Source of the DNA: Levilactobacillus wangkuiensis
Lineage (GTDB): Bacteria > Bacillota > Bacilli > Lactobacillales > Lactobacillaceae
NCBI RefSeq assembly: GCF_016861605.1
Contig: NZ_BOLM01000008.1
Location: 1 to 64,000, forward strand
Direction of reading: 5' to 3'
Length of the DNA: 64,000 nucleotides
Positions 313 to 56,965 of the stretch are shown piece after piece (position 1 is the first letter of the stretch; the number at the start of each line of letters is the position of its first letter). A model generated the notes under the pieces. It was not told the DNA's origin. It made no database searches and worked only from the letters and a program-made list of their open reading frames with translations. The position numbers and the translations under genes were made by a program.

Positions 313-515
313 GCCAGTGTGAGTGACCAGAGGTGAATCAAGGTGCCCCGCTGTGTCGATGTTCTTAGCTGAGTGCTTTATTCTCAGCTTAGAACATGAG
401 GCGACCTTGGAAACTCGCGACCTTCAGCGAGGTTTCAAGGCGAGGTGGAAGACCGCTTCTCAGGCTGGAACCGTCCTCCATAGCGGGGTACCTTGAATTC
501 ACCGCCGGGAACGGA
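313..515 (-). repeat. Structured intergenic repeat, subfamily B, copy 1
   Basis: Read on the minus strand, this copy has the four-stem layout of the family. The closing stem pairs GGTGAATTCAAGGT with ACCTTGATTCACC. A second arm carries TTCCAGCC and GCGGTCTTCC. A third hairpin, CCTTGAAACCTCGC with GCGAGTTTCCAAGG, is strong. The fourth pairs GTTCT and AGCTGAG with CTCAGCT and AGAAC, leaving a single A opposite A. GCTATGG after the closing stem can pair with the CGACACAGC segment. It lies downstream of the CoA-disulfide reductase gene and upstream of nothing obvious. The rest of the first 535 bases shows no gene. Confidence 0.75.
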
Positions 516-535
516 CGCACGCCACCTGATTTTCG

Positions 536-2188
536 CTAGTCGTACAGGAGCTCGTCAGGCCGGACTGTGTGATACAGCGAAAAGCCTCCATCCAAATTAA
601 CCACATCAAACCCATGCTGCTTCAAAATCCGCTCGGCCACGTAACTCCGGTGACCACTCTGACAGCTGACAATGTATGGTTGCTGTGGATCTAATTCGCT
701 TAACCGGTCACGCAATTGGTCAAGCGGAATGTTTCGTGATTCCGGGAAATACCCCTGCGCCAATTCATCCGGATTTCGCACGTCGATCAGCTGACGACCG
801 GCCACCTCATTTTCCTTGAGCGCAGACCACTGAATGTTATCGCTGAAACCCTCAACCACGTTTAACGCGGCGTACCCCAGCAGGTTCACGGGGTCCTTGG
901 CCGACCCAAACGGTGGCGCATAGGACAATTCCAACTCCGGTAGGTCTGCGACCGTCAGGTGTCCCTTGATGGCCGTGGCCAAAACGTCGATGCGCTTGTC
1001 CACCCCATCCGGCCCAACCCCCTGGGCGCCGTAAATTTCGCCGCTATCCGGGGCAAAGAGGAGTTTTAATAAGAGAGACTGGCTACCGGGGAAGTAGCTG
1101 GCGTGATTGTCTTCTCGCACGTGAACTGCCCGGAAAGGTCGACCTTGATTGCGTAGGTCGGCTTCGTTCAACCCGGTCATTGCCGCAGTCTGATCGAACA
1201 CCCGCACGATGGCCGTGCCGATGCTTCCGCGGTTCCGCCGGGGATGGCCGGCCACGTTATCTGCCACCTGACGACCCTGCCGATTGGCCGGCGACGCCAA
1301 TGAAATGAGCGCGTCCTGTCCGGTCAGTTGTTGCTTGACCAAGATGGCATCCCCCACCGCATAAACGTCAGCGGCGCTGGTTTGATAATAATCGTCAACC
1401 ACGATGCCGCCGTGATCGCCCAAGGTGATACCGCTGCCGGCAAGGAAGTCCGTGGCCGGCCGTACACCGACCGTCAGCAACGTCAGGTCCGTTTGCAGTT
1501 CGGTCTCATCATCCAAAATCAGTGTCCGGCCCGCGTGGCGAAATCCCTGGACCGCGTGGCCGGTGATGACCCGGACATCATGGGCAACGAGTGCCTGCTG
1601 AACGCCGGCTGCCATTTCCTCATCCAATGGTGGCAAGAGGTGTTGGTGCTGTTCCACGATGGTCACGGTCAAGCCCCGTTGACGCAAGGCCTCGGCCATT
1701 TCCAAGCCAATAAAGCCGCCGCCCACCAGCGTGACGCGCTGAGCGGCCGTATCGTTGAGTTGCGCCATGATTTGGTCTAAATCGGGAATGTTGCGCAGAA
1801 CCCAGACATTTTTCGCAGCGGTCAACCCGGCTAACTCGGGCACGACCGGCACGGCTCCGGGCGCCAAAATCAGACGGTCATAGGATTCGACCGTTTCTTG
1901 TCCTTGGCTGACCACGGTCACCGTATGCTGCGCTGGACTAACGGCCGTCACCCGATGACTCGTTCTCACGTCGATACCGAATCGTTGCTGTAGCTTAGCG
2001 GGCGTCTGTACCAGGAGATCTTCCCGGTCACTGATTTCACCGGATAGATAAAATGGCAGGCCACAGGTAGCGTACGACACGTAGGGCCCCTGTTCCAGCA
2101 CCACGATTTCCGCCGTCTCATCCAGCCGACGTAGCCGCGCGGCAGCGGCCATACCACCAGCCACGCCCCCAACAATCACAAATTTCAT
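536..2188 (-). CDS. CoA-disulfide reductase-like flavoprotein fused to a C-terminal rhodanese domain
   Basis: This is a 550-residue pyridine nucleotide-disulfide oxidoreductase. The N-terminal FAD motif GGVAGGMAAAA is at residues 7-17. A single redox cysteine (Cys42, in YATCGLP) is typical of CoA-disulfide and persulfide reductases rather than the CxxxxC enzymes. An NAD(P)H Rossmann segment (LVGGGFIGLEMAE) lies mid-protein. The last 100 or so residues form a rhodanese domain with active-site Cys509 in VSCQSGHR. The fusion suggests NAD(P)H-dependent reduction of CoA disulfide or polysulfide with sulfane sulfur handling in the cytosol. The frame is open 55 codons further upstream, but ATG at 2188 follows AAAGGAG and begins the dinucleotide fold. 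It stands alone; the exact substrate is inferred from the family. Confidence 0.88.
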   Translation of the reverse strand: MKFVIVGGVAGGMAAAARLRRLDETAEIVVLEQGPYVSYATCGLPFYLSGEISDREDLLVQTPAKLQQRFGIDVRTSHRVTAVSPAQHTVTVVSQGQETVESYDRLILAPGAVPVVPELAGLTAAKNVWVLRNIPDLDQIMAQLNDTAAQRVTLVGGGFIGLEMAEALRQRGLTVTIVEQHQHLLPPLDEEMAAGVQQALVAHDVRVITGHAVQGFRHAGRTLILDDETELQTDLTLLTVGVRPATDFLAGSGITLGDHGGIVVDDYYQTSAADVYAVGDAILVKQQLTGQDALISLASPANRQGRQVADNVAGHPRRNRGSIGTAIVRVFDQTAAMTGLNEADLRNQGRPFRAVHVREDNHASYFPGSQSLLLKLLFAPDSGEIYGAQGVGPDGVDKRIDVLATAIKGHLTVADLPELELSYAPPFGSAKDPVNLLGYAALNVVEGFSDNIQWSALKENEVAGRQLIDVRNPDELAQGYFPESRNIPLDQLRDRLSELDPQQPYIVSCQSGHRSYVAERILKQHGFDVVNLDGGFSLYHTVRPDELLYD

Positions 2189-2288
2189 ATCCAAGCTCCT
2201 TTCGAGATACCCCCGTAGGTATGTAACTTCTTTCAGTATAGCCGACCCGTGATTGGGCGCAACTATTTTGCCAATAAGTGTAAAAGAA

Positions 2289-2320
2289 AAGCCGGCAAAC
2301 GATTTCCGTTTACCGACTTC
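2289..2320 (-). terminator. Terminator of the DUF308 gene
   Basis: On the minus strand AGTCGGTAAACGG and CGTTTGCCGGCT pair around a short loop and are followed by TTTTCTTTTA. It starts just past the stop codon of the upstream minus-strand gene. Confidence 0.8.
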
Positions 2321-2327
2321 ACTATAA

Positions 2328-2873
2328 TTAGGAACGACTGCGCGCAATGGCAATCCAAATGGCGTTCACGCCAAAAACCGCAAAGAAGAACGCAATCAAT
2401 ACGTTCAGGGATAAGGCGGCAGCAATTGGGTGAATGAAGAGCATGATGCCGACGATTAAGGTCACAACATCTAACACGACCGACAGCCAGAACCAAACGC
2501 CCCCAAAATCTCGAAGGTGACTGGCGACCAGCAACCGTTCAATGGAGTCAAAAATAAACCACAGGGCAAATAAATAACCCAGCGTCACGATGGCACTGTT
2601 CATATCAAAGAAGAACACCACCGCAATCAGAATATCCAGGACACCAAAAACTAACGCAAAGTTAGCCCGTAATCCGGTTGCATCATGCAATTTTTTATAA
2701 CCCGCAATCGTGGTCAACCCACTCAGCAGTGCCATGAAGGCAAAAATAATGGCTAATCCGGTTAGCCCGATCTTAGGTGAGCGCATTAAGCCAAACGCGG
2801 CAACGATGAATAGAATACCGAGAATGAACTCGCCCCAGTCAAAACCCCAACGGGATCGATTCATATTAAACAT
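2328..2873 (-). CDS. DUF308 (HdeD-like) multi-pass membrane protein
   Basis: This 181-residue protein has five to six hydrophobic segments in paired hairpins, such as FILGILFIVAAFGLM and LIVGIMLFIHPIAAALSL. That repeated layout is the hallmark of DUF308/HdeD family inner-membrane proteins. Its function is not known with certainty; the E. coli relative is tied to acid resistance. I chose ATG 2873 because GAGGAG sits nine bases upstream. A longer frame begins at 2924 but has no better ribosome site. It is monocistronic, with its own terminator at 2289-2320. Confidence 0.8.
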   Translation of the reverse strand: MFNMNRSRWGFDWGEFILGILFIVAAFGLMRSPKIGLTGLAIIFAFMALLSGLTTIAGYKKLHDATGLRANFALVFGVLDILIAVVFFFDMNSAIVTLGYLFALWFIFDSIERLLVASHLRDFGGVWFWLSVVLDVVTLIVGIMLFIHPIAAALSLNVLIAFFFAVFGVNAIWIAIARSRS

Positions 2874-3039
2874 AGTCTGCATCTCCTCACAATTCCGGCC
2901 AAGTGGCGACCGGCTTTCAATCATTGTACTGGTTTTTCAGTCCGTCGACAAGTTCTACCCGCACCCAAATGCCGGGCAAACCGTGAACGGTCAACGTTAC
3001 CCCATTTTGTAACATTTTGATGACTAACCGACCGGATCA

Positions 3040-3088
3040 AAAAAGCAGCAAGCACCGCGCACAAAGGCGTGGGCACTCGCTGCTACTG
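3040..3088 (-). terminator. Terminator of uvrA
   Basis: On the minus strand AGCAGCGAGTGCCCACGCC pairs with the GCGGTGCTTGCTGCT side around a short loop and runs into TTTTTTGATCC, 13 bases or more after the uvrA stop. Confidence 0.85.
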
Positions 3089-3100
3089 ATTGGCATTTCG

Positions 3101-5953
3101 TTAAGCTTGATCTTCTTTGGTCCGGGCGGTGTCGCGTTCCAGTACCGGCTTCAGGTATTGACCCGTATAGCTCTCGCTGACCTCGGCCAGTTCTTCAGGC
3201 GTTCCAGTCGCAACCACGTTACCACCGGCTTCCCCACCTTCAGGACCCAAGTCGATCAGGTGATCGGCCGTCTTGATGACGTCCAGGTTATGTTCGATAA
3301 CCAACACCGTGTTGCCCTTATCGACCAGACGATGAAGCACGACTAACAGGCGTTTGATATCATCGCTATGCAACCCCGTTGTCGGTTCGTCCAGGATGTA
3401 GAAGTTCTTCCCGTTCTGTTGTTTGTGCAGTTCGGAAGCTAACTTCATCCGTTGGGCTTCCCCACCAGACAATGTGGTGGCGGGTTGGCCTAATTTAACG
3501 TAACCCAAACCAACGTCCTGAATCGTCTGTAGCTTCCGGGTAATCTTAGGAATGGCATCGAAGAACTTCAGGGCTTCACTGACCGTCATGTTCAAGACGT
3601 CAGAGATATTCTTCCCCTTGTATTCGACTTCCAGCGTTTCGGAATTGTACCGCGTCCCATGACAAACCTCACAAGGCACGTAGACGTCGGGCAGGAAGTT
3701 CATTTCAATCTTCAAAATCCCATCACCGTGGCAGGCTTCACACCGGCCACCCTTGGTGTTGAAACTGAACCGGCCCTTTTGATAGCCCCGCAACTTGGCA
3801 TCGTTGGTCTGTGCAAAGAGTGTCCGCACGTCGTCAAAGACCCCGGTATAGGTCGCCGGGTTACTCCGCGGCGTTCGGCCAATGGGACTCTGGTCGATAT
3901 CCACCAATCGTTCAATGTTTTTGACCCCGGCGATGCTCTTGTACTTACCGGGCTTCTCAGAGTTGTGATTCAACTTCTGCGCCAGGGCACGCTTCAGAAT
4001 TGTGTTGACCAGCGTGGACTTCCCAGAACCAGAGACCCCGGTCACCACGACAAATTCACCCAATGGGAAGTCGACCGTGATATCCTTCAGGTTGTTTTCA
4101 GCTGCACCGGTAATTTCGATGGACTTACCGTTGCCCGTGCGCCGTTCCAAAGGTACCGGAATGTACTGCTTACCGGCTAAATACTGACCCGTCAACGATT
4201 TCCGCGAACGCATGACCTGCTTGGGGGTGCCGGCAGCCATCACGTGGCCCCCGTTTTCACCCGCACCGGGGCCAATATCCACGATGTAATCGGCGGCACG
4301 CATGGTATCCTCATCATGCTCAACGACGATCAGGGTATTCCCCAAATCACGCATCTGCTTGAGGGAGGCAATCAGCCGATCGTTGTCCCGTTGGTGCAGC
4401 CCAATTGAGGGTTCATCTAAGATGTAGAGCACCCCGGACAGGTTCGAACCAATCTGTGTGGCCAACCGAATCCGTTGGGCTTCCCCACCGGACAGGGTCC
4501 GTGCCGAACGACTGAGCGTGAGGTAATCCAATCCCACGTTCCGTAAGAACGTCAGCCGGTCCCGAATTTCCTTCAAGATGGGTTGGGCGATGACTTGGTC
4601 TTGTTCCCCAAAGGACAGGTCTTGGAAGAAGGCCAGTTCCTTTTCAACGGGTAATTCAGAGACCTCACCGATGTGTTGGTGATTGATTTTGACACTCAGA
4701 GCTTGGCGGTTCAACCGAAAGCCGTGGCAAGTCTGGCAAGTCAATTCGGTCATGTACTTGCGCATCACATCACGGGTGAAGTCACTGTTGGTTTCGTGGT
4801 AACGCCGGTCGATGTTCGGGATGACCCCTTCAAATGCAACATCCACGTCACGCACGCCACCAAAATCATTTTCGTAATGGAAATGGAATTCCTTACCTTG
4901 TGATCCATAGAGCACCAGGGCTTGGTCGTTCTTGGAGAGCTTTTCAAATGGGGTATCCATGTCCACACCAAAAGCGTCACAAGCCTGTTCTAACAAGGCT
5001 GGGTAGTACTGTGAGCTGATGGGATTCCAGGGTTCCAAGGCCCCTTCGCGCAGTGTCTTGGTTCTGTCGGGAACGACCAGATCCAGGTCGACCTCCAGCT
5101 TGACCCCTAACCCATCACAATCCGGGCAGGCCCCAAATGGTGCGTTGAAGGAGAACAGCCGGGGTTCGAGTTCCCCCACCGTAAACCCACAGACTGGGCA
5201 GGCGTAGTGTTCAGAGAAAATCATCGGCTCACCGTCGATCAGGTCGGCGATGGCATAGCCACCACTCAGGCGCAGGGCAGCTTCAAATGAGTCAAACAGC
5301 CGGGAACGAATCCCCTTCTTGACCACGACCCGATCGATGACGATGGCAATATCGTGGTTTTGATTCTTGTTCAGTTCGGGAACTTCAGACAGGTCCATGG
5401 TTTCACCATCTACCCGCACCCGCACGAAGCCTTCGCGTTGAATCTTTTCAAAAATTTTCTTATGCTGACCCTTCTTACCCCGGACAATGGGGGATAAGAT
5501 CTGCATCTTCGTCCGTTCAGGCAAGGCCAGGACTTGATCGACCATCTGCTCAACACTCTGGCTGGTAATCTTGGTACCGTCGTTGGGACAGATAGGTGTC
5601 CCGACCCGGGCCCACAGCAGGCGCAGGTAGTCATTGATTTCGGTAACCGTCCCAACCGTCGACCGCGGGTTCTTTGAGGTCGTCTTTTGGTCAATGGAAA
5701 TGGCCGGACTGAGCCCATCAATGGAATCGACGTCTGGCTTGTCCATCTGTCCCAGGAATTGCCGAGCATACGATGACAGACTCTCAACGTAACGGCGTTG
5801 GCCTTCCGCGTACAGGGTGTCAAACGCCAATGAACTCTTCCCGGAACCGGAAAGACCACTGATGACGACCAATTTATTCTTAGGAATCGTCACGTCAATA
5901 TCCTTTAAGTTATGGGCCCGCGCCCCGTGAATCACGATTTTATCGTTTGCCAA
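3101..5953 (-). CDS. uvrA: Excinuclease ABC subunit A
   Basis: This is the 950-residue damage-recognition ATPase of nucleotide excision repair, of normal family length. It has two ABC modules. The first Walker A (GLSGSGKS) is at residues 33-40, and a second (GVSGSGKST) lies past the middle. Both have LSGGEAQR signatures. CxxC zinc-binding pairs (CPVCGF with CPDCDG; CEACHG with CEVCHG) are present. The start is TTG at 5953, with GAGGAG nine bases upstream. It lies 20 bases after the uvrB stop on the same strand and is expected to be co-transcribed with it. UvrA loads UvrB at lesions, so the pairing fits. Confidence 0.98.
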
Positions 5954-5973
5954 ATTGAAATCTCCTCACTAAC

Positions 5974-7980: not shown

Positions 7981-8164
7981 GAATGGTAACCTCCCTGCTA
8001 CTGTTATTTTCACTGCGCTGGCTGAAAGTCTGGCCTGTTCCCAGTCCCGCTTTCCTCGACGCCACGCCGCAGTTTCGTTCGTTGTCAGGCCCTGCCAGAC
8101 TGGCAGAAATGCCTGCAATCGCAAAAAGAGTCTGGACGTAAATCCAAACTCATTACGCTAAAAT

Positions 8165-8190
8165 ATTTTACCATACCGAACATACTTTCG
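8165..8190 (-). promoter_or_regulatory. Likely SOS-controlled promoter of uvrBA: LexA-like box and extended -10
   Basis: CGAACATACTTTCG (8177-8190) matches the Gram-positive LexA box CGAAC-N4-GTTCG with one mismatch. On the minus strand an extended -10, TGG followed by TAAAAT (8165-8170), lies seven bases downstream. A LexA box between the -35 and -10 is the usual SOS arrangement. The -35 is weak. Confidence 0.55.
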
Positions 8191-8207
8191 CCAGTTTGGC
8201 GACCTAC

Positions 8208-9367: not shown

Positions 9368-9473
9368 AGTTCCCTTCAGCTCCCTCAAGTTAGTGATTGC
9401 CGTTGGAGCGGTCCCCAACATATTCTAAAGTTAGCTTACCACTCTTTTCGGTTTCAATTCACCTATTAGCCCA

Positions 9474-9511: not shown

Positions 9512-9522
9512 CTAATCACACA

Positions 9523-15221: not shown

Positions 15222-15398
15222 GCCGCAGGGAGAGTGAAAATGGTCTCAGCCGTGGGAATTGCCTTATCGGCGAACTAGGCCGATTAGGCAATTGATATCT
15301 TTGAGACATCCTGATGGCTCAAAGTAAGCGCGGAGACCGCTCTTTGGCTCCGGGCGTTCGCCCACAGTGTTCCGGACCATTTTCACTCTCCCGGAGGC
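15222..15398 (-). repeat. Structured intergenic repeat, subfamily A, copy 1
   Basis: Read on the minus strand, the ends GCCTCCGGGAGAGTGAAAA and TTTTCACTCTCCCTGCGGC pair as the closing stem. The inner hairpins are GGAG...GCGGTCTCC, CTTTGAGCC...GTCTCAAAG, and AATTGCCT/AGGCAATT with ATCGGC/GCCGAT, leaving A opposite A. It is 177 bp long, the same as copies 2-4. It sits between phoU and the pspC gene. The open frame here is only a translation of the repeat. Confidence 0.8.
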
Positions 15399-25471: not shown

Positions 25472-25522
25472 GTTGGTTGGCTCCTTTTTAGTTATTCTAT
25501 TTGTTTCAGGTTAAATGTTGTC

Positions 25523-25699
25523 GCCTCCGGGCTGGTGAAAAATGAGCCGTGACGCTGTGGGCGCCCGTCTGGAGCCAAAGAGCGGTCTCCAGACTTACTT
25601 TGAGCCTCACAATCCGAGGCTCAAAGATAGCAATTGTCTAAGCAGACCAGCTGCTAAGGCAATTCCCACGGCTGAGCTCATTTTCACCAGCCCTGCGGC
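25523..25699 (+). repeat. Structured intergenic repeat, subfamily A, copy 2
   Basis: This is the cleanest copy. The closing stem pairs GCCTCCGGGCTGGTGAAAA with TTTTCACCAGCCCTGCGGC, extended by GTGGG/CCCAC. The hairpins are P2 25567-25594 (GTCTGGAG/CTCCAGAC), P3 25598-25626 (CTTTGAGCC/GGCTCAAAG) and P4 25632-25664 (AATTGTCT-A-AGCAG with CTGCT-A-AGGCAATT, one A.A mismatch). It lies between secA and prfB, which are both on the minus strand. The rest of 25472-25884 holds only the secA terminator. Confidence 0.85.
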
Positions 25700-25841
25700 T
25701 AACACTAGTTTAACCCATAACCAAGACTGCTACTAGTATGACACACTTATCAGTCATGTGCCGCCAATAACTCTGTCTTAACCTTATTCGTGACTAAGAC
25801 TGTCTTGTCCTCGCCACTACTTAGCATTTTTTGAAGTTAAA

Positions 25842-25876
25842 AATAAAACGAGGTCGGAATTGCTTCCGCCTCGTTC
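25842..25876 (-). terminator. Terminator of secA
   Basis: On the minus strand AACGAGGCGGAAGC and TTCCGACCTCGTT pair and are followed by TTATTTTTAAC, ten bases after the secA stop. Confidence 0.85.
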
Positions 25877-35527: not shown

Positions 35528-35705
35528 TGGCCGCCTGCGGCTTCCAGGACTACGCCTGCTGTGGGGCCGGTTTCCGCCTGGGGTGCGGGCTCCCACCTCA
35601 ACTTTGAGCCCTGCTAAGCTCATGCAGGTCTCAAAGATTGTCCCATTCTGTAAGCCGGCCCAAGAACGCCGACTAACAGAATCGACACAGCCGTCTCCGT
35701 CCTGG
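35528..35705 (+). repeat. Structured intergenic repeat, subfamily B, diverged copy 2
   Basis: It keeps the B order: GCTGTGGGG, a degraded second arm (GGTTTCCGCC), the hairpin CTTTGAGCC...GGTCTCAAAG, and a fourth hairpin ATTCTGT-A-AG...CT-A-ACAGAAT with the A.A mismatch, then CGACACAGCC. The closing stem is poorly kept. The rest of 35460-36120 has no gene I can support; a 69-codon frame here is a translation of the repeat and its flank. Confidence 0.55.
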
Positions 35706-44040: not shown

Positions 44041-44757
44041 TTATAAAGCGGTGTACCCGCCATCGACGTTAATCGTGGCGCCGGTCACAAATGAGGCCTC
44101 GTCACTGGCGATAAAGGCAATGACGTTGGCAATTTCTGCCGGTTCGGCTAACCGACCGATTGGCATCTTACCCACCATCGGGCCAGTCACCTCTGGCGGC
44201 AACGTCTTCAGGAGTGGTGTTGCCACGTAGCCCGGTGCCACCGAATTGAACCGGATTCCCTGTTGCGCATAGGTGACTGCCTGGGATTTGGTATAGTTGG
44301 CCACACCAGCCTTAGCCGCGGAGTAGGCCTGGGATTTTGCAGCGCCCACGACCCCGAGAATCGAGCTCATGTTGACGACGCTCCCACTCCCCTGCTTCAC
44401 CATCTGAGCAACGGCGACCTTGTTAGTCAAGACGACCCCGGTCAAATCAATCGCGATAACTTTGTTCCAATTGGCCATATCAATGTCGGCCACACCGGCC
44501 TTCTGCTCGGCAACCCCGGCATTGGCCACCAGAATGTCTAGATGACCGTACTGGCTGACCACCTGATCGACCATGGCTTGTAGAGACTGCTCGTCCGTGA
44601 CGTCCGTCTTGATAAACGCCACGCCCTCATCGGCAGGAGCCGTCACGTCAGCGGACACCGCCGTCGCACCCTCCGCCGTAAACTTTTGAATGGTTGCCAG
44701 TCCGATTCCGGACGAGCCACCCGTGACAACGGCTACCTTGTTCTCTAGCTTACCCAT
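44041..44757 (-). CDS. Short-chain dehydrogenase/reductase (FabG-like)
   Basis: This 238-residue classical SDR has cofactor motif TGGSSGIG (12-19), an NAG segment near residue 79, and the catalytic Tyr145 and Lys149 in AYSAAKAG, with Ser131/132. The C-terminal GATINVDGGYTAL is typical of 3-oxoacyl-ACP reductase-like enzymes. It stands alone rather than in a fab cluster, so it is probably an accessory ketoreductase of unknown substrate. Confidence 0.88.
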   Translation of the reverse strand: MGKLENKVAVVTGGSSGIGLATIQKFTAEGATAVSADVTAPADEGVAFIKTDVTDEQSLQAMVDQVVSQYGHLDILVANAGVAEQKAGVADIDMANWNKVIAIDLTGVVLTNKVAVAQMVKQGSGSVVNMSSILGVVGAAKSQAYSAAKAGVANYTKSQAVTYAQQGIRFNSVAPGYVATPLLKTLPPEVTGPMVGKMPIGRLAEPAEIANVIAFIASDEASFVTGATINVDGGYTAL

Positions 44758-44822
44758 GACACATCACTCCTTTGCGTCCAGTATACTGCAATTTATCGTT
44801 TAAATGTAAGCGCTTTAGTCGT

Positions 44823-45000
44823 GCCTCCGGGTGGGGGAAAATAAGACCGGTCCGCGGTGGGCGAACGCCTGGAGCCAAAAAGCGGTCTCCAGACTTACTT
44901 TGAGCCGCTGAGAAACGCGTCTCAAAGATATCAGTTTCCTAAGCGGCCAAGCCGCTAAGGGAACTCCCACGGCTAGGCTTATTTTCCCCCACCCTGCGGC
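44823..45000 (+). repeat. Structured intergenic repeat, subfamily A, copy 3
   Basis: The ends GCCTCCGGGTGGGGGAAAATAA and its partner in TTATTTTCCCCCACCCTGCGGC pair. Note GTGGGGGAAAA here against CTGGTGAAAA in copies 2 and 4, matched by CCCCCAC on the other side. Inner hairpins are CTGGAGCC...GCGGTCTCCAG, CTTTGAG...CTCAAAG, and AGTTTCCT-A-AGCGGC with GCCGCT-A-AGGGAACT. It lies upstream of the SDR gene; 45001-45221 holds nothing I can name. Confidence 0.85.
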
Positions 45001-45221
45001 TCACTTTGGCTTAGCCCGTCAATACAGAATTCCCGTCACTTCAAAAGGGGCGATTCGCCATAAAAATATCCTTATTAAAAAGTCGTTCCCATAAAAATGG
45101 AAACGACCGCGTTATTTATTCTATTTAAATGTGTGCACCCACGCTAATATAACCTTACGCCCCAAAGACGATTAGGACCCAACCACGTCAGACGTCGGAT
45201 ACTGAAAGTTAGCCGACATAA

Positions 45222-45414
45222 TCAGTGTCAGTGACCAGAGGCGGACCAAGGTGCCCAGCTGTGTCGGCGGTCTTGGTTGGGGTTTTTGCCCAACCTAGTC
45301 CGCGGGACGATCTTTGAGACCGCCTTTCGGCTCAAAGTCGAGGTTCCAGACCGCCCCTCAGGCTGGAACCGACCCCATAGCAGGGGCACCTTGAGTCCGC
45401 CGCCGGGAACGACC
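45222..45414 (-). repeat. Structured intergenic repeat, subfamily B, copy 3
   Basis: On the minus strand the closing stem GGCGGACTCAAGGTGCCC pairs with GGGCACCTTGGTCCGCC. Then come GGTTCCAG/CTGGAACC, CTTTGAGCC...GGTCTCAAAG, and CTAGGTTGGG...CCCAACCAAG with the A.A mismatch. CGACACAGC follows. The 88-codon frame over it is only the repeat. Confidence 0.85.
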
Positions 45415-45471
45415 AGGACCATGCTCCGGGTATCTTCACTAGTCCGGAGACACCACCAAAACCATTTGCGC

Positions 45472-46542
45472 CTAGTCAGTAAATGAAATGCCATCGTACG
45501 TTAACTGGCAGAACTCGGCGATACGCTGGAAGAATCTCTCCACAACTGGCTGATCAAAGTCACCCCAACGTTTGACCGTAAACCGCATTCGCTTCCCCGA
45601 AATCTGATAATTCCAATGACCAACCAACTGGCCGTTGACAATAATGGGGGCCATCAGGATGCCGTTCACGGTCCACATTTTCGACTGCAGTTTCGGGTCG
45701 ACTAACCAGCCTTTTTGCTGGTAGCCGGTCATCAGTGAACTGAACCGCGGCGCAATCAGCGTGCGGTCGGCCACCTCTGCCGTTATTTCCCGCAATTTTT
45801 GGGCCGACACTGCCTGCATCAGCCACAGCGTTTCGCCCGCAACCGTCACGGGCGTCAACTCGGGTTCAACCACACGCCACGCCGGCCGGGCCTTGCCAAT
45901 CTTAACGCCCGACCATTTGACAAAGTCCGTCAACGTGGCGGGACCGAATCCCGTGAGGTAGCGGCGAATCAGGTCTTGGGTCGCTAGTTGCTGGTCAGTC
46001 CGGGTAAAGGCCGGTCGAAACAGGTGAAACTGACTCTGCCCCGGCTGGCCCTGCATCACAGCGCGGCCTTGTGCTTCCAACACTTGGAGAACCGCGTAAT
46101 CAAAGTTCCGTGAGCGCTTCAAGTCCGGGACCAGTTCAGCCACACAGGCCAGGTAATCCGTCTTGGACAATTCTCGGTGCTGTAGGACCGCCGCAATCTC
46201 ATCGGCCACGGCGTATACCTGCTCGGACTGTCCTTCAAAATAGGCTTTGGGGAGCCGCTCCGTTTGCCGGGCGTTGATCATCAACTGCCAGTCCGCCGCG
46301 GTATAGAGGTGTAGCGTCCATCGTTGCCCCCAGGAGCGAACCAGCTGCCGCGTCTGATACAGTGCCGTCAACTCGACCATACTAGCCTGAGTTTGTAGCG
46401 CGACGGTCAGCTCGGCGACCCGCTGATTCTGAGCCTGAATCCCAATCACTTGGGTAAACGGCTGTAAAATTGGCGCATCAACCGTTAACACGCCCTGCTG
46501 AAATAACCGGTAAGCCAAAAGTTCTGCTGGCGTCATGGGCAT
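45472..46542 (-). CDS. Winged-helix DNA-binding domain protein (HTH_42, YcaQ/AlkX-like)
   Basis: This 356-residue protein is of the PF06224 type. N-terminal helices contain a QVIGIQAQNQRVAELTVALQ segment. A middle region has VRSWGQRWTLHLYTAADW, a recognisable family pattern. The C-terminal part has MTGYQQKGWLVDP and WNYQISGKRMRFTVKRWG. Relatives include DNA glycosylases acting on crosslinks and alkylated bases. That activity is possible here but not shown. It ends 18 bases before tsaD on the same strand order. Confidence 0.8.
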   Translation of the reverse strand: MPMTPAELLAYRLFQQGVLTVDAPILQPFTQVIGIQAQNQRVAELTVALQTQASMVELTALYQTRQLVRSWGQRWTLHLYTAADWQLMINARQTERLPKAYFEGQSEQVYAVADEIAAVLQHRELSKTDYLACVAELVPDLKRSRNFDYAVLQVLEAQGRAVMQGQPGQSQFHLFRPAFTRTDQQLATQDLIRRYLTGFGPATLTDFVKWSGVKIGKARPAWRVVEPELTPVTVAGETLWLMQAVSAQKLREITAEVADRTLIAPRFSSLMTGYQQKGWLVDPKLQSKMWTVNGILMAPIIVNGQLVGHWNYQISGKRMRFTVKRWGDFDQPVVERFFQRIAEFCQLTYDGISFTD

Positions 46543-48969: not shown

Positions 48970-49023
48970 AATTACTTGCGTTCCCCTTTACTGGACTTCA
49001 CCAAGCCGGTGAGTTGCCGGGAA

Positions 49024-49056
49024 GTGAAAAGCGGTGGCCGAACTCGCCCACCGCTA
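49024..49056 (-). terminator. Terminator after the thioesterase gene
   Basis: AGCGGTGG and CCACCGCT form an eight-base stem; on the minus strand TTTTCACTTC follows. It lies 110 bases beyond the thioesterase stop and upstream of tsaB. Confidence 0.75.
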
Positions 49057-49162
49057 ACCATCTGTCTCGGTTGTTGCGCCCGTTTACTGTCTTTATCAGT
49101 TTATTATACTACCACAAACGGACGGGCGCGACATCTTCTCTGCTTGAATTTTCTTAAAAAGA

Positions 49163-49906: not shown

Positions 49907-49911
49907 CTAGG

Positions 49912-50796: not shown

Positions 50797-50804
50797 GTGG
50801 CCTC

Positions 50805-51152
50805 CTACTGATCGCGGTAAATAACTTCCAGGCAAAAGGCACATTCCTCATCCTGCTTGCGCCGGGTTCCGTAGAATTCCCGGCAAACGTGAAAGCCTTC
50901 CTCATAAAGTTTCTCCAGAATCTGTCGCGACTTGGAGAGCCCTTGGGGTGTTTCGGGATCCTCAGGCAATGTCTTCTGTAGCTCCCGCACCAAGTCCCGC
51001 AAGTGCTGATTCTCAATTTCTAATTCGGCATTTTGCTCAAACACCTGCGTCATCTGCGTTTGTAAGTCAGAGAATTGGGCGAGCATCTGCTGCAACTGAC
51101 CCTCAAGACTCTTGAACTGATCATAAACTTCTTCTTTATCCAAAGCTGCCAC
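50805..51152 (-). CDS. yabA: DNA replication initiation control protein YabA
   Basis: This 115-residue protein has an N-terminal coiled coil (residues 5-65) and a C-terminal zinc-binding part with His-Cys (FHVCREFYG) and ECAFC. YabA binds DnaA and the beta clamp to restrain re-initiation. It lies between holB and rsmI, as in B. subtilis. Confidence 0.95.
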   Translation of the reverse strand: MAALDKEEVYDQFKSLEGQLQQMLAQFSDLQTQMTQVFEQNAELEIENQHLRDLVRELQKTLPEDPETPQGLSKSRQILEKLYEEGFHVCREFYGTRRKQDEECAFCLEVIYRDQ

Positions 51153-51172
51153 CCCTCCAATGCTGACTAGTC

Positions 51173-52186
51173 TTAGCGCATTTGCGCCAGAATCTGTAAC
51201 GTTAAGGCTTCTAAGATTGCTTGAAAATTCATGTTCCCGGCCAACTGCCCGCGCGTGGCAAGTGTCAGCGTCATGATGGCCACCAGCTGGTCGATGGACA
51301 GGCGTTGACCCACCTCACGACTCGCCTGTGCCACTTGCGGATAGGCTAAGTCATCTGGACCGACCGTCCCCGACTGTTGGCGTAAGGCATCGTGCCAGGC
51401 CTGAACGACCATGTCTAAGACAATACCTTGCCGATCTCGGTTACTGCCCAGCGGGACCAGGTCCGTTTGCACACGAACAAAGGCCCGCTCATCCTTAGCA
51501 CAACAGGCGGCTAACCATTGGCCCACCGCCGTCTGTGCGTCCTTTAGCCAGTCATCCGTCGTCAAATCCATGGCGGCACTGACGCTTTCTGTTAAGGTGG
51601 TCAACAAGTAGCGTTGACTTGGCGCGACGCCGGCCGTGGCCAGGGCATCCGTCAGGGCTCGTGGCGACACCCGGAGAAAATCAACGACCTGAGTCCGCGA
51701 CAAAATCGTGGGTAAAATCAGGTTTTTATTGGCCGTCAACAATAACGCCACCGTGTTACCTACGGGTTCTTCAATAAACTTTAACAGGCTATTAGCGGCA
51801 CCAGTCGTCATGCGGTCGACCTGGTCGACGATGAAGATTTTTTGATTGCCCTCCACCGCACTCTTGGTGAATTCCGCCTTTAAGTAGCGGACTTGGTCGA
51901 CCTTAATGCGTTGGCCGTCTGGGACCACGCTGACCACGTCGGGATGGTCACCCGCCATGATGCGCCGGCACTCGGCACACGTGCCGCAGGGCAAGCCCTC
52001 GGGCGTGACATTTTGGCAAAATAGCCGCATGGCCACGGTCCGCGCAACCGCTTGCCGGCCGGTCCCATCCGCACCATTAAAAAGGTAGGCGTGCGCCAGA
52101 TGATTGGTTTGAATCAGTTGCATAAAGTGGGTCACGAGTTGCGGCTGAAGCCGTTTGGCCGTGGCGACCACGGATTCTTCGGTCAT
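51173..52186 (-). CDS. holB: DNA polymerase III subunit delta prime
   Basis: This 337-residue clamp-loader subunit has a degenerate P-loop (GADGTGRQ), the zinc cluster CQN...CGTCAECRR, and KIFIVDQVDRMTTGAANSLLK followed by an EEP segment, as in DnaX but with altered ATPase residues, which is normal for delta prime. It works with DnaX (54997-56733). It follows darA by nine bases. Confidence 0.95.
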   Translation of the reverse strand: MTEESVVATAKRLQPQLVTHFMQLIQTNHLAHAYLFNGADGTGRQAVARTVAMRLFCQNVTPEGLPCGTCAECRRIMAGDHPDVVSVVPDGQRIKVDQVRYLKAEFTKSAVEGNQKIFIVDQVDRMTTGAANSLLKFIEEPVGNTVALLLTANKNLILPTILSRTQVVDFLRVSPRALTDALATAGVAPSQRYLLTTLTESVSAAMDLTTDDWLKDAQTAVGQWLAACCAKDERAFVRVQTDLVPLGSNRDRQGIVLDMVVQAWHDALRQQSGTVGPDDLAYPQVAQASREVGQRLSIDQLVAIMTLTLATRGQLAGNMNFQAILEALTLQILAQMR

Positions 52187-52195
52187 ATTTTCCTC

Positions 52196-52525
52196 CTAAA
52201 ACCGGTGGAACTGCTCAACGGGCATCACGAACACCGTGGCGCCGCCGACTTGGACTTCGACCGGGTAAGCGGAAGTACTGTCAAGTTGGGCATCCAGGTT
52301 AACGGGTGGCGTCATGAACTGCTGCCGCGTGTGGCTGGCTTCCTTGATCATGTTCAGCACCTCATCCACGCGGTCGTCTTCCAACCCAATCATAAACGTC
52401 GTGTTCCCGGACTTTAAGAAGCCGCCGGTCGTGGATAACCGGGTCGCGCGAATATCGTGATCGATAAATTCATTACTGAGACGGTTTGCATCCTTATCTT
52501 GGACAATGGCGATTAATAATTTCAT
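52196..52525 (-). CDS. darA: Cyclic-di-AMP receptor DarA (PII-like)
   Basis: This 109-residue PII-like protein starts MKLLIAIVQDKDANRL and has the TRLSTTGGFLKSGNTTFMIG B-loop region that contacts c-di-AMP, and the terminal VFVMPVEQFHRF. It is also called PstA in some species, which is unrelated to the phosphate permease above. It sits between tmk and holB, the standard place. Its output partner is not known. Confidence 0.95.
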   Translation of the reverse strand: MKLLIAIVQDKDANRLSNEFIDHDIRATRLSTTGGFLKSGNTTFMIGLEDDRVDEVLNMIKEASHTRQQFMTPPVNLDAQLDSTSAYPVEVQVGGATVFVMPVEQFHRF

Positions 52526-52552
52526 AACTGGTTTCCTCCCTCAATGCCGGTG

Positions 52553-53197
52553 CTAAAAGTAAGCTTGGGCCGTGTGCTTGATGAGTGCCAACGCCTGTTC
52601 CACCACAACTTCAGGTGCCTGCGTGGCATCAATCAGTTTGATTCGTTCCGGGTGCGCAGCTTGTAAGCGCAAATAGGCCGCCCGGACCCGGTCATGGAAG
52701 GCCGCCTGCTCAACGTCTAACCGGTCGACCTTCTGGGGGTCCCGGTGCGCTTGAATCCGGTGTAGCCCCACCTCAGCGGGAACATCGAAGTACACGGTCA
52801 ATTCGGGCAACAGCCCGTCCGTGGCAAATTCATTCATTTGGGCAACGGCAGCTTCCCCGATTTCGCGGCCAGCCCCTTGATAGGCAACGGAACTGTCCAC
52901 GTAACGGTCACACAACACCAATTTGTCGGCAGCTAACGCGGGTAAAATGGTCTCCGCTAAGTGTTGCCGCCGAGCCGCTGCGTACAGTAAGGCTTCCGTG
53001 CGATAATCCATCGCCGTGTTGGCGCGGTCTAAAATGATGGCCCGAATACTCTCAGAAATCGGGTTACCCCCGGGTTCTCGCGTAATCGTGAGTCGGTCAC
53101 CCAACACAGGCGCAATTTGTGCGGTAATGGCCTGCAGCGCGCTAGTTTTCCCGGCGCCGTCGGGTCCTTCAAAACTAATAAACGTTCCTGACAACAT
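52553..53197 (-). CDS. tmk: Thymidylate kinase
   Basis: This 214-residue kinase phosphorylates dTMP to dTDP. P-loop GPDGAGKT is at residues 11-18, DR(Y/H) motif LCDRYVDSSVAYQG mid-protein, and a lid region near RDPQKVDRLD. The start is uncertain: ATG 53197 is preceded by GGGGT at short distance, and ATG 53209 in the same frame has no ribosome site. It heads the tmk-darA-holB-yabA-rsmI cluster. Confidence 0.96.
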   Translation of the reverse strand: MLSGTFISFEGPDGAGKTSALQAITAQIAPVLGDRLTITREPGGNPISESIRAIILDRANTAMDYRTEALLYAAARRQHLAETILPALAADKLVLCDRYVDSSVAYQGAGREIGEAAVAQMNEFATDGLLPELTVYFDVPAEVGLHRIQAHRDPQKVDRLDVEQAAFHDRVRAAYLRLQAAHPERIKLIDATQAPEVVVEQALALIKHTAQAYF

Positions 53198-53302
53198 ACT
53201 CGACCCCATTTTTGTTTGATAGGTATATTGTACTTGAATTCAGAATTGATGTCTATTTGCATCGCTAGCTTTCGCCTGTTTCTTACCAAAAGTTCACGAC
53301 TT

Positions 53303-53551
53303 GGCGTTGGTGAAAATGGTTCCTCGCTGGTCGTTCCCGCCGGTGGGCTCAAACCGCCCTGCTGTGGGGAACGGCTCCAGCCTGGGAAGCGGTCTTCCGC
53401 CTCGCCTTGAAACCTCGCTGTGGTTCGCGAGTTTCCAAGGTCGTCCCGTGCTCTAGACTGAGAAGTTCACTCAGTCAAGACCACCGACACAGCTGGTCAG
53501 TTTGGCCCGCCTCTGGTCACTGACACTGCGTGGACCTTTTCACCAACTCCG
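53303..53551 (+). repeat. Structured intergenic repeat, subfamily B, copy 4 (longest)
   Basis: Outer arms GTTGGTGAAAATGGT and ACCTTTTCACCAAC pair and recall the TGGTGAAAA ends of subfamily A. Inside are GGTGGGCTCAAAC with GTTTGGCCCGCC, then CCTTGAAACCTCGC with GCGAGTTTCCAAGG, then TCT-A-GACTGAG with CTCAGTC-A-AGA. CGACACAGC follows. It lies upstream of tmk. The remaining 53552-53720 shows no gene. Confidence 0.85.
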
Positions 53552-53715
53552 TCATTCATGGTCACGCACTATGCAAGTCTGACCGACACCAAATTTTTTC
53601 TATCGTAGACACCACAACTAGCGAACGCAAAACCAATTCAACCAATTATCCTAACGTTGCTTAAATTTTTTCAACTCACTCTCCTCAATTCTACACGCCC
53701 CGTCAACACGAGCGC

Positions 53716-53751
53716 GTAAAAAAAGACGAAAGCCACAACGCCTTCGTCTTC
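53716..53751 (-). terminator. Terminator of the recR-yaaL unit
   Basis: AAGACGAAGG and the CTTTCGTCTT side pair and run into TTTTTTACGC on the minus strand. Confidence 0.85.
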
Positions 53752-53769
53752 TCCTTGCTACTTATTAAA

Positions 53770-54021
53770 TTAATCGCGGAACACTGCGGCGGAGATGTGC
53801 TTTCCTCTGACGTGACGGCGACGGGCTTCACGGTACAAGAAGAGGTACGTCTGCCGGGCCAGCGCGGTGTTGGCCGTCATTTGATTGTCGGCGTCCGCAA
53901 TGGCCTCTTCCGTTTGCTTGGCATGGTCCCAACGGTCCTTGGCGTCGTCGATGCTCAACAAAAGTTGTTCATCGTACGCAGCCTTTAACCGTGGGAGTTG
54001 CCGTTTCTTTCGTCCAAACAC
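53770..54021 (-). CDS. YaaL family (DUF2508) small protein
   Basis: This 83-residue, mostly helical protein begins with a basic FGRKKRQLPRLKAAYDE and ends in a basic YREARRRHVRGKH. It matches the YaaL/DUF2508 proteins encoded next to recR in Firmicutes. Function unknown. The start is GTG 54021 after GAGGAGGG. It is separated from recR by 14 bases. Confidence 0.85.
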   Translation of the reverse strand: MFGRKKRQLPRLKAAYDEQLLLSIDDAKDRWDHAKQTEEAIADADNQMTANTALARQTYLFLYREARRRHVRGKHISAAVFRD

Positions 54022-54035
54022 GTGGCAACCCTCCT

Positions 54036-54635
54036 CTACATTTCCGTTCGGCCTTCAACCGCCTTGAACAGCGTCATTTCATCCGCGTATTCAATATCAC
54101 TCCCGACGGACAAGCCGTGGGCTAACCGCGTGACCTTGATTCCGGCCGGTTTGATCAACCGTGACAGGTACATGGCCGTGGCTTCACCCTCTGGCGTGGC
54201 GTTGGTGGCGATGATAACTTCTTTAATTGACGGATTCTGCTGCAACCGGTTGATGAGGCTGGCAATGTTCAGGTCTTCCGGCCCCTTGCCTTCGATTGGC
54301 GACATGACCCCTTGCAAAACGTGGTACAGGCCATGATATTCCTTCATCTTTTCCATCACCATGATGTCCTTGGCCTGTTCGACCACCAAGACGTGCGATT
54401 GATCCCGCGTCTTGTCGGTACAGATGACACACGGATCACTCTCGGTAATGTTTCCACAGATGGAACAGAAGTGCAGGTTTTTCTTAGCTGAAATTAAAGC
54501 CTTGGAAAACGCCGTGACGTCGTCTTCTTGCATATCAATCGTGAAGAAGGCCAGCCGCGTCGCTGACTTTTGCCCAATACCGGGCAGCTTCATGTAGCTG
54601 TCGATCAGTTGGGCAATCGGTTCTGGATACTGCAT
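54036..54635 (-). CDS. recR: Recombination protein RecR
   Basis: This 199-residue protein of RecFOR-type gap repair has an N-terminal helix-hairpin-helix ([15 protein letters not shown]), a zinc finger CSICG...CVIC, and a Toprim domain ([29 protein letters not shown]). ATG 54635 has AAAGGA ten bases upstream. A GTG at 54641 is in frame but too close to that site. It is co-oriented with dnaX and ebfC. Confidence 0.97.
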
Positions 54636-54656
54636 GGTCACAACGTCCTTTCTAGA

Positions 54657-54977
54657 TTACATCCCGGGAATGTTCATGCCTTGCGTGTATTTGCCCAGGG
54701 ATTGTTTCGTTGCTGCATCAACTTGGCCCAGGGCGTCGTTAACGGCGGCCAGGACTAAGTCAGCCAACATATCAGGGTCATCGGGATCGATGGCTTCTGG
54801 CTTGATGGTCAGGTCGGTCATCTTCCGTTCACCGGTAAAGGTGGCTTGGACCATGCTATCTGGTGAAACGCCGGTAAAGCTTTGGGCGTTCAAGTTGTTT
54901 TGGTCCTCTTCCATCTTCTTTTGCATTTGGCGCATTTGTTTCATCATGTTTCCCATATTTCCCATGTTCCGCATCAT
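54657..54977 (-). CDS. ebfC: YbaB/EbfC nucleoid-associated protein
   Basis: This 106-residue protein is rich in Met and Gln at its N-terminus ([16 protein letters not shown]). The dimer core [22 protein letters not shown] and the C-terminal [13 protein letters not shown] are typical. EbfC binds DNA with little specificity. It lies between dnaX and recR, the standard place. Confidence 0.95.
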
Positions 54978-54996
54978 TAATCATCCTTTCAAGGTT

Positions 54997-56733
54997 TTAA
55001 TCATTTTTAACATCAACAACATCTTTACCAAACAGTTCTTCCGCCTTGGTGACGACGGGATTAGGTGCTGGCTTAGCTGGTTCCGGTGACTCAGCGTTAT
55101 TCTGCAACTCCTCACGATGGTCTGTCAAATAATTCTTTCGAATCGTTGGCCAGTCATCCTTGGGCACGAAAACAACGGGTAACGCCGTCCCAATCATGCG
55201 ATCCAAGCCGTTTTCCAGGGCGTCGGTCAACTCGTGATCGGTCGTCGCACGCTGGTAAAGGAACGAGTAATCGAAGGCCACAATGACCCCGGAATCCGCC
55301 GCCGCTACCGGTTGCGATACCTTCATCACGGCCCGCTGGGTAATAGACAACGTGTCCAGCAGATCTGGCCAAACCTCTTGGAGTTGGTTGAGCTTCTCAC
55401 GGGTGGCCGACCCCAAAACGGGATAGATCTTCGCGAGATTAACCTCTTTAGCCGGCGCTGCCTTCGTCGTTCGTGGCTTGGCCGCTGCGGGTTTCGCCGC
55501 AACCGGTGCTTGTTCCAGTTGCTTGACCGTGTTGCGTAGTTGGTCGACCTCGTGTTGCAGGGACGTCAGTTCGCTTGAACTGGCTGCCGTTTGTGGTACG
55601 GCGGATGCCTCAGCCGTTGGTGCTACCGGTTGGGCTGCACCCACCTGCCGGCCAATTTCAGCCAATTTAATGGTCAAAATTTCTAGGTAGACGTCGGGAT
55701 GGGTCGTGAACCGCATCTGTTGTTGAATGGCGTTTAACTCATTGATCATGGCGTACATGGTCTGTGCTGGCGTTTTCTCAGCCAAAGCCTGGAAGTCCTC
55801 GCTCACACTGCCCATCTCGGCCTCTTCAACCAGCTGCGGGGCCTGCTGATAGAGTAACAAATCGCGGGCATAACTGATGACGTCCTCGGTGAACCGCTCG
55901 GCATCCTTGCCCGCTTCCAAAACGGATTGGAGCGTGGCTAAGGCCGCCTTGGTATCTCCGGCTAGGACCTGTTGCACGTAGGTTGCCAATAGTTCGTGGG
56001 TCACACTCCCCGTCACCAACAACGCGTTATCCAAGGTGATTTCATTGTCCCCAAAGGACAACGCCTGGTCGAGAATACTCAGCGCATCCCGCATACCACC
56101 TTCGGCTGCCTTGGCAATCACCTTAACAGCCTGTTCATCGTAGGTGACACCCTTCTGGTCCAAGATATACGTCATCCGGTTGTAACTATCATTGGCCGCA
56201 ATTCGTTTGAAATCAAATCGTTGGGTCCGCGAAATAATTGTGGCTGGAATCTTGTGGGGTTCCGTGGTGGCTAAGATGAAAATCACGTTAGCCGGTGGCT
56301 CTTCCAACGTCTTTAACAGCGCGTTGAACGCCCCCGTCGATAGCATATGAACTTCATCAATAATGTAGACTTTGTAATCGGCCACGGTCGGCGCGTACTT
56401 CACCTTATCCCGGATATCCCGAATTTCTTCGACCCCGTTGTTCGAAGCCGCATCGATTTCAATCACATCGTTGAGCGTTCCCTCGGTGATGGCCTTGCAG
56501 GTCTCACATTCGTTGCAGGGTTCGCCGTCCGTTTGATGGTGACAGTTGATGGCCTTCGCAAAGATTTTAGCCGCCGAAGTCTTCCCGGTTCCCCGCGGAC
56601 CAGCAAAGAGGTACGCGTGACTGATTTGGTTGGTCGTAATGGCGTTTTTCAAGGTGCGGGTAATGACTTCTTGCCCGATCATATCCTCGAATCGCTGGGG
56701 CCGCCAGACCCGGTAAAGTGCTTGATAAGCCAT
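54997..56733 (-). CDS. dnaX: DNA polymerase III subunits gamma/tau
   Basis: This 578-residue clamp-loader ATPase has Walker A GPRGTGKTSAAKIFAKAINC, a zinc cluster CNECETCK, DEVHMLSTGAFNALLKTLEE, and the SRTQRFDFKR sensor. The C-terminal half (after residue 390) has an Ala/Pro-rich linker and tau-specific domains. I chose ATG 56733 with AAAGGA upstream, ten codons inside the longer frame. No internal frameshift site was sought or is needed. Repeat A4 lies directly upstream. Confidence 0.97.
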   Translation of the reverse strand: MAYQALYRVWRPQRFEDMIGQEVITRTLKNAITTNQISHAYLFAGPRGTGKTSAAKIFAKAINCHHQTDGEPCNECETCKAITEGTLNDVIEIDAASNNGVEEIRDIRDKVKYAPTVADYKVYIIDEVHMLSTGAFNALLKTLEEPPANVIFILATTEPHKIPATIISRTQRFDFKRIAANDSYNRMTYILDQKGVTYDEQAVKVIAKAAEGGMRDALSILDQALSFGDNEITLDNALLVTGSVTHELLATYVQQVLAGDTKAALATLQSVLEAGKDAERFTEDVISYARDLLLYQQAPQLVEEAEMGSVSEDFQALAEKTPAQTMYAMINELNAIQQQMRFTTHPDVYLEILTIKLAEIGRQVGAAQPVAPTAEASAVPQTAASSSELTSLQHEVDQLRNTVKQLEQAPVAAKPAAAKPRTTKAAPAKEVNLAKIYPVLGSATREKLNQLQEVWPDLLDTLSITQRAVMKVSQPVAAADSGVIVAFDYSFLYQRATTDHELTDALENGLDRMIGTALPVVFVPKDDWPTIRKNYLTDHREELQNNAESPEPAKPAPNPVVTKAEELFGKDVVDVKND

Positions 56734-56786
56734 GCAATCTGTTCCTTTCTTGAAAATATTCATCTGATTAAATGGTCGTTGGTTTT

Positions 56787-56965
56787 GCCTCCGGGCTGGT
56801 GAAAACTGAGCCGTGACGCTGTGGGCGCCCGTCTGGAGCCTGAGAAGCGGTCTCCAGAATTACTTTGAGCCGCTGAGAAACGCGTCTCAAAGATAGCAGT
56901 TACCTAAGCGGGAAACCCGCTAAGGTAACTCCCACGGCTGAGCTCATTTTCACCAGCCCTGCGGC
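56787..56965 (+). repeat. Structured intergenic repeat, subfamily A, copy 4
   Basis: The closing stem GCCTCCGGGCTGGTGAAAA pairs with TTTTCACCAGCCCTGCGGC. P2 is TCTGGAGCC...GCGGTCTCCAGA. P3 is CTTTGAGCCGC...GCGTCTCAAAG. P4 is AGTTACCT-A-AGCGGG (56898-56912) with CCCGCT-A-AGGTAACT (56915-56930). It begins 54 bases upstream of dnaX. 56966-57229 contains no gene I can name. Confidence 0.85.

What the first reader, a model, noticed from the sequence alone, without database searches (positions are those of the whole stretch)
313..56965. A dispersed family of at least eight structured repeats with covarying stems
Eight intergenic segments (A: 15222-15398, 25523-25699, 44823-45000, 56787-56965; B: 313-515, 35528-35705, 45222-45414, 53303-53551) share one fold: a closing stem and three hairpins in the same order. 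A copies are 177-179 bp. Paired bases change together: the B closing stem is GGTGAAT/ATTCACC in copy 1, GGCGGAC/GTCCGCC in copy 3 and GGTGGGC/GCCCGCC in copy 4; the A fourth stem is AATTG/CAATT in copies 1-2 and AGTTACC/GGTAACT in copy 4. Such change implies selection on structure. I recognise no named family. One copy per 8 kb suggests many copies genome-wide.
Basis: partly seen in the sequence, partly recalled or inferred. Interest (0 to 1): 0.85.

Follow-up and report, generated by a model that had tools for sequence, protein, structure and literature searches.

The report
Genus-wide structured repeats beside genes
This lactic acid bacterium carries several hundred copies of a folded, RNA-like repeat that usually turn the same end toward the neighbouring gene, and the copies in front of genes change in a way that suggests they matter as RNA.

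Summary
The eight segments are two homologous families, A (~177 bp) and B (~197 bp), with three hairpins inside a closing stem, in both orientations (A copy 15222 is inverted). In 0.999 Mb of this genome 170 copies exceed 50 bits (~530 genome-wide by extrapolation). A strict A pattern occurs in 12 of 25 Levilactobacillus genomes and 0 of 372 from other genera of the family. No Rfam match. Covariation is strong: 35 of 60 and 37 of 57 pairs change on both sides, 0/500 shuffles.

New: (1) one defined end is nearer a gene in 147/158, 83/91 and 132/146 copies of three species, whether a start or a stop faces it. (2) Orthologous copies accumulate paired changes, mostly transitions, and G·U tolerance exceeds a slid-pair control only in copies facing gene starts (0.743 vs 0.584). 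(3) A and B replace each other at shared sites with orientation kept (14 of 64).

Best reading: portable elements of mobile origin, kept folded as RNA before gene starts. Spread and polarity are unexplained; transcription is untested.

The parts
315..513 (+). B element (core); its 3' end faces the stop of the ORF 536-2353
15222..15398 (+). A element; only window copy with its 5' end nearer a gene; opposite orientation to its G020 orthologue
25523..25699 (-). A element; G020 has a B core in the same arms
35532..35693 (-). degenerate B element, also B in G020
44823..45000 (-). A element, first of a (-,+) pair; G020 has a B core in the same left arm; a promoter-like stretch lies between its 3' end and the gene
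45223..45411 (+). B element, second of the (-,+) pair; not present in G020
53332..53528 (-). B core, conserved as B in G020
53303..53331 (.). outer arm (GGCGTTGGTGAAAATGG..) of the shell around the B core at 53332
53529..53551 (.). matching outer arm (..TTTTCACCAACTCCG)
56787..56965 (-). A element; G020 has a B core in the same arms

Best explanation
A and B are two homologous versions of one multi-copy, non-coding element of the genus Levilactobacillus. Each is a branched fold: a closing stem, three hairpins with conserved loops, and outer arms often extended by further palindromic shells. The elements spread in the past as mobile or copied DNA (inferred; route not identified) and many now sit at sites shared between species, where recombination between copies replaces one core by the other while keeping arms and orientation (inferred from A/B exchange). 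They lie close to coding regions with one defined end toward the gene (shown). Copies in front of start codons are kept folded by selection on the B-direction strand as RNA (supported by paired transitions and strand-specific G·U tolerance); where no room is left for a promoter they must be in the 5' leader (inferred). Copies behind stop codons would be read as the reverse strand and show no strand-specific constraint (shown). The most likely job is mRNA processing or protection next to coding regions, for example through a long double-stranded stem and stable hairpins (inferred, untested).
For: Copy number and distribution. Covariation in 32 A and 33 B copies. Consensus fold better on the B-direction strand: -86.9 vs -65.2 kcal/mol (A), -76.1 vs -53.4 (B). 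Orthologous cores G000/G020: 36 double changes (33 paired) vs 5.8 +- 2.3 permuted; 62 of 119 one-sided changes keep a pair; double changes 31 transition vs 3 transversion pairs. Repeat with G345: 70 vs 20.7 +- 4.1; 45 vs 16. One-sided G·T:A·C 81:28 facing starts, 50:39 facing stops; slid-pair controls 0.584 and 0.557. Polarity 147/158, 83/91, 132/146. 40 of 73 stop-facing copies lie within 60 bp of the stop, with no terminator between; several start-facing copies end just before the Shine-Dalgarno sequence. Orientation-preserving type change at 14 of 64 and 13 of 81 mapped sites.
Against: No expression data. The G·U excess is as strong in start-facing copies 70 bp or more from the gene (52:17) as in nearer ones (29:11), and strong promoter-like sites are commonest in the flank between the 3' end and the gene (16 of 361, against 3, 7 and 2 in the other flank/strand classes), so some start-facing copies lie upstream of the promoter and not in the leader. 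The start/stop contrast is significant in the first data set (p 0.024), not in the second alone (p 0.15). Elements diverge about as fast as other intergenic DNA (8.3% vs 7.1%); with 35-bp flanks included, stem changes break a pair more often than they keep one (207 vs 122). 19 of 95 double changes are transversion pairs, so template switching or conversion contributes. No mobilising enzyme was identified.
Confidence: 0.4

Rival explanations
1. Purely selfish, non-autonomous mobile elements (MITE- or REPIN-like). The fold is needed for mobilisation as single-stranded DNA or RNA; resident copies have no host role, and polarity reflects the insertion mechanism or selection against harmful insertions.
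For: High copy number, inverted ends, genus restriction, nesting; elements diverge like other intergenic DNA; G020 copies look internally deleted; no bias for a gene context (22 divergent, 75 tandem, 23 convergent, against 55, 139, 43 gaps over 200 bp).
Against: Compensatory change and a start-specific strand bias in resident copies; no Y1 transposase in G000, reverse transcriptase does not track the repeats, no target-site duplication seen.
Confidence: 0.3
2. Mutational upkeep: template switching within palindromes and conversion between copies keep arms complementary, extend them outward and flip cores, so covariation needs no selection.
For: Locus-specific outer palindromes; core flips (1 of 64, 3 of 81); paired change equally common in stop-facing copies, with no strand bias there; template switching is documented for RNA hairpins (PMC8794818, abstract read).
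Against: Double changes are 76 transition to 19 transversion pairs, while 39% of single changes in elements are transversions; G·U bias only at start-facing copies, above the slid control; conserved mismatches in the arms persist.
Confidence: 0.15
3. DNA-level gene-boundary element: cruciform, protein-binding or bidirectional terminator function between genes.
For: Same polarity at starts and stops; 26 of the 40 stop-facing copies within 60 bp of a stop have no recognised terminator on either side.
Against: No T-run signature (3 of 25 long outer palindromes); strand-specific G·U tolerance points to RNA.
Confidence: 0.1

Closest known systems
REPIN / REP-BIME elements with RAYT transposases (PMC3116915, abstract and outline read)
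   Same: Hundreds of extragenic, hairpin-forming copies per genome, often in inverted pairs
   Different: Much longer (177-197 bp plus arms), three-hairpin branched fold with conserved loops, no RAYT found, fixed polarity to genes, replacement of one core by a homologous one
BOX, RUP and other families listed in PMC2267715 (passages read)
   Same: Intergenic structured repeats of Firmicutes with many copies
   Different: Not compared by sequence here. The one Lactobacillus family seen in those passages (Lac-1 of L. johnsonii) is said to lie within coding regions
MITEs (recalled definition)
   Same: Short, non-coding, inverted ends, dispersed
   Different: No target-site duplication or partner found; strand-specific constraint in resident copies
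Structured 5' leader RNAs (recalled definition)
   Same: Conserved fold upstream of the Shine-Dalgarno sequence with compensatory change
   Different: Hundreds of copies, and about as many behind genes, read on the other strand

Membership tests
any Rfam 15 family | score at or above the family's gathering threshold | tested here: not met
   In the window only the SRP RNA (57267-57353) reaches a threshold; in 44750-45500 at E <= 10 four matches, best E 0.088 with 15.6 bits of 53.5 needed. Copies outside the window were not scanned
REPIN/RAYT | RAYT (Y1_Tnp, PF01797) gene in the genome | tested here: not met
   0 matches in G000; rings in 5 of 14 control genomes
REPIN/RAYT | inverted pair of copies as the unit | tested here: inconclusive
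   (-,+) pairs dominate below 1 kb, but 63 copies are single and spacer similarities among G000 pairs (69 hits, up to 76 bp) lie in element arms in the best hits inspected
MITE | inverted terminal arms | tested here: met
   GCCGCAGGG..CCCGGAGGC ends with conserved mismatches plus further arms
MITE | target-site duplication at filled versus empty site | tested here: not met
   One clean absence found (G020, TTTCT at the junction); G345 keeps that copy, so a deletion is likelier; outgroups G019 and G003 differ in sequence there
MITE | autonomous partner with matching ends | not tested
   No insertion sequence was searched by its ends
structured RNA | covariation beyond controls | tested here: met
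structured RNA | transcription | not testable with these tools
   no expression data held

The most novel reading that the evidence does not exclude
A genome-wide sense/antisense UTR system. By the polarity rule, transcripts entering a gene would carry the B-sense fold in the leader and transcripts leaving a gene its reverse complement in the trailer, so hundreds of leaders could pair in cis or in trans with hundreds of trailers. Levilactobacillus would use one repeated RNA as a common handle for mRNA processing or stability, with leader copies selected as RNA.
Probability: 0.17. Interest if true: 0.9.

Novelty: new variant of a known kind. Interest (0 to 1): 0.63.

Why it matters
High-copy structured repeats are often treated as selfish DNA or typing markers. 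Here about 3% of a genome (extrapolated) is one fold with a strong orientation rule relative to coding regions and a strand-specific signature of RNA selection before gene starts. That makes the question of whether such repeats act at the RNA level testable in harmless food bacteria (L. brevis and relatives), and the hundreds of orthologous copies are a natural data set for separating compensatory selection from palindrome correction.

Tried and rejected
Integron attC sites: the outer GTTAAAC/GTTTAAC arms recall the core sites only as a short palindrome (motif recalled, not tested). RAYT mobilisation: PF01797 absent from G000. Reverse-transcriptase copying: 10 of 35 genus genomes have RVT_1; repeat-bearing G345, G019, G001 and G008 have none. 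Own promoter on the 5' side: not enriched (47 and 39 of 361 at the lower cut-off on the two strands, 46 and 31 on the 3' side). A conserved 5' tail or shared spacer: similarities found were element arms (17 of 63 flanks). Insertion into terminator loops: locus-specific outer palindromes are real, but T-runs follow in 3 of 25, and at least two of the 25 are a simple repeat or an element fragment. Target-site duplication: not supported. Plasmids (A and B) and phages (A only): no match. Viral contigs: B pattern 0, A pattern 3, of which one (L309) holds real copies.

A first test misled me: with 35-bp flanks stem changes looked unconstrained; in the core alone the compensatory signal is clear. Both are reported. 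One search had a strand-handling error that dropped - strand hits, so alignments A1 and A2 draw on 29 of 61 and 31 of 86 full-length + strand hits (near-duplicates removed) plus 3 and 2 window copies added by hand. Orthologue counts leave out pairs below 80% identity, 85%, 83% or 84%; 85-86 pool the data of 79 and 84, whose loci partly overlap. The mixed genus loci (L128-L226) include L. lanxiensis and L. mulengensis, the species of G020 and G345, and one Chloroflexi locus (L208) that holds no element.
Full report
WHAT IS THERE. The eight segments of the finding exist as stated and are the eight that profile searches find in the window. They are two families: A, ~177 bp, and B, ~197 bp. Read in one direction ('B direction'), both have a closing stem, three hairpins and matching motifs, and each sequence profile hits copies of the other family at about E 1e-5 to 2e-8. 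A covariance model of A finds 4 A and 3 B copies in the window; its B scores (34-52 bits) are close to its scores for A copies read backwards (29-42), so this adds little by itself. A copy 15222 is inverted. B 53303-53551 is a B core in A-like arms, and 35532-35693 a degenerate B.

HOW MANY AND WHERE. In 999,356 bases of G000 (the window, 40 stretches spaced along contigs, and fill-in stretches) there are 195 hits at E <= 1e-4, 170 of them above 50 bits (57 A, 113 B): 533 +- 80 per genome and 3.2% of the DNA by extrapolation. G020 has 165 and G345 195 per Mb in the parts held. An A copy used as query matches 17 of 24 genomes of the genus and 0 of 16 from other families. A strict A pattern matches 12 of 25 genus genomes and 0 of 372 from other genera of the family. 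Plasmids (A, B) and phages (A): no match. One viral contig has a (-,+) pair at its very end. In an 864-kb sample, 3 of 120 copies overlap an ORF over 150 aa by more than 60 bp.

STRUCTURE. On 32 A and 33 B diverse copies the consensus folds have 60 and 57 pairs; 35 and 37 change on both sides; 97.9% and 96.9% of cells pair; 0 of 500 shuffles reach any observed measure; slid structures fall to 32-47% paired. Shuffles ignore relatedness, and the structures were derived from the same alignments. The fold is better on the B-direction strand. Rfam: no family at threshold in the window and nothing near one in 44750-45500.

NESTING. B cores often sit inside A-type arms. The palindrome frequently continues into sequence unique to the locus: own left and right flanks match better than 98% of cross-locus pairs in 12 of 41 A and 30 of 67 B copies, and beyond the 25-bp shell in 25 of 161 copies at a 99% null, of which at least two are a simple repeat or an element fragment.

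POLARITY. Neighbouring copies under 1 kb apart are (-,+) 35, same-direction 16, (+,-) 0 in G000; 22, 9, 0 in G020; 30, 18, 0 in G345; 45, 21, 0 in the mixed genus loci. The B-direction 3' end is the one nearer a coding region in 147/158, 83/91, 132/146 and 168/185 copies, 10/10 in G003 and 8/9 in G019. ORFs were called mechanically, and the sets share species and loci, so these are not independent. In G000 a start faces that end in 85 and a stop in 73. In 63 single copies the 5' side is at least 86 bp from a gene, while the 3' side goes down to 8 bp and in some cases an ORF start is called inside the element. Neither shared spacers nor a conserved tail explain this. Of 73 stop-facing copies, 40 lie within 60 bp of the stop with no terminator between (14 have one beyond); of the other 33, 21 have one between; control stops have one in 159 of 240. 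Several start-facing copies end just before the Shine-Dalgarno sequence, but strong promoter-like sites are commonest between the 3' end and the gene (16 of 361), so other copies lie upstream of the promoter. The window exception, 15222, has the opposite orientation from its G020 orthologue; by its coordinates the G020 copy obeys the rule (my reading).

EVOLUTION AT SHARED SITES. Of 64 copies mapped between G000 and G020, 49 keep type and orientation, 14 change type with orientation kept, 1 is flipped. Of 81 mapped from G345, 62 are the same, 13 change type with orientation kept, 3 are flipped, 3 are absent. Three G020 copies look internally deleted, at least one at a short direct repeat. Elements diverge 8.3%, other intergenic DNA 7.1%, third codon positions 13.9%. 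With 35-bp flanks, one-sided stem changes break a pair 207 times and keep it 122 times. In the cores of 41 orthologue pairs, 62 of 119 one-sided changes keep a pair and 36 pairs change on both sides (33 still paired), against 5.8 +- 2.3 permuted, maximum 13. With G345: 70 against 20.7 +- 4.1, maximum 32. Double changes between Watson-Crick pairs are 31 transition and 3 transversion pairs, then 45 and 16; 39% of all changes in elements are transversions.

STRAND. A Watson-Crick pair that changes on one side can become G·T or A·C on the B strand; RNA tolerates the first better. Counts: facing a start 34:13 and 47:15; facing a stop 17:19 and 33:20. The start/stop contrast has Fisher p 0.024 in the first set and 0.15 in the second; pooled 0.010. 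Locus bootstrap: 0.743 (0.667-0.816) against 0.562 (0.462-0.663), difference 0.057-0.305, 47 and 40 loci. Partners slid by 1-6 positions in the same sequences give 0.584 and 0.557, so only the start-facing value exceeds its control (Fisher p 0.0013; slid cells are not independent). Against the simplest leader model, the excess is the same for start-facing copies nearer than 70 bp (29:11) and farther (52:17).

MECHANISM. Shown: fold, copy number, polarity, exchange, paired change, strand effect. Inferred: transcription, recombination between copies as the cause of exchange, a role in mRNA processing or protection. Not found: a mobilising enzyme among the two families searched, a target-site duplication. 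An autonomous partner was not searched for by end sequence. Why the same end faces both starts and stops is unexplained; one consequence is that transcripts would carry the sense before genes and the antisense after them.

LITERATURE. No title or opening abstract in the listings I saw describes these repeats: 2 of 2 papers, 20 of 270, 0 found, 15 of 133, 10 of 12, 10 of 14; only open-licence papers are held. PMC2267715: passages. PMC8794818: abstract and start of the introduction. PMC3116915: abstract. PMC8604942 on arm homogenisation and spacer inversion: listing only.

Noticed in passing
L117:11635-11937 (G019 C11:31635-31937), orthologous to window 25505-25845: A different palindromic repeat (TTGCCGAAACGTGC..), apparently two copies in a row, where the window has an A element; G007 shows a shorter related palindrome there. 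A further repeat family may use the same sites.
   Followed up: no
L258:9399-10198 (G000 C1:109399-110198): Tandem array of a 273-bp unit, 2.9 copies, with degenerate B-like cores; also present in G020.
   Followed up: partly
window 57267-57353 (-): Small bacterial SRP RNA, 57.3 bits, about 300 bp from the A element at 56787.
   Followed up: no
L309:852-1374 (first 1558 bases of an IMG/VR contig): A (-,+) pair of elements at the end of a contig called viral; possibly host DNA next to a prophage.
   Followed up: partly
L070:7005-7356 and G020 C2:10918-10922: Element absent from G020 exactly between TTTCT repeats next to a terminator; G345 keeps it.
   Followed up: yes
window 15222-15398: Only window copy whose 5' end is nearer a gene; inverted relative to G020, as if the core had flipped between its palindromic arms.
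   Followed up: partly
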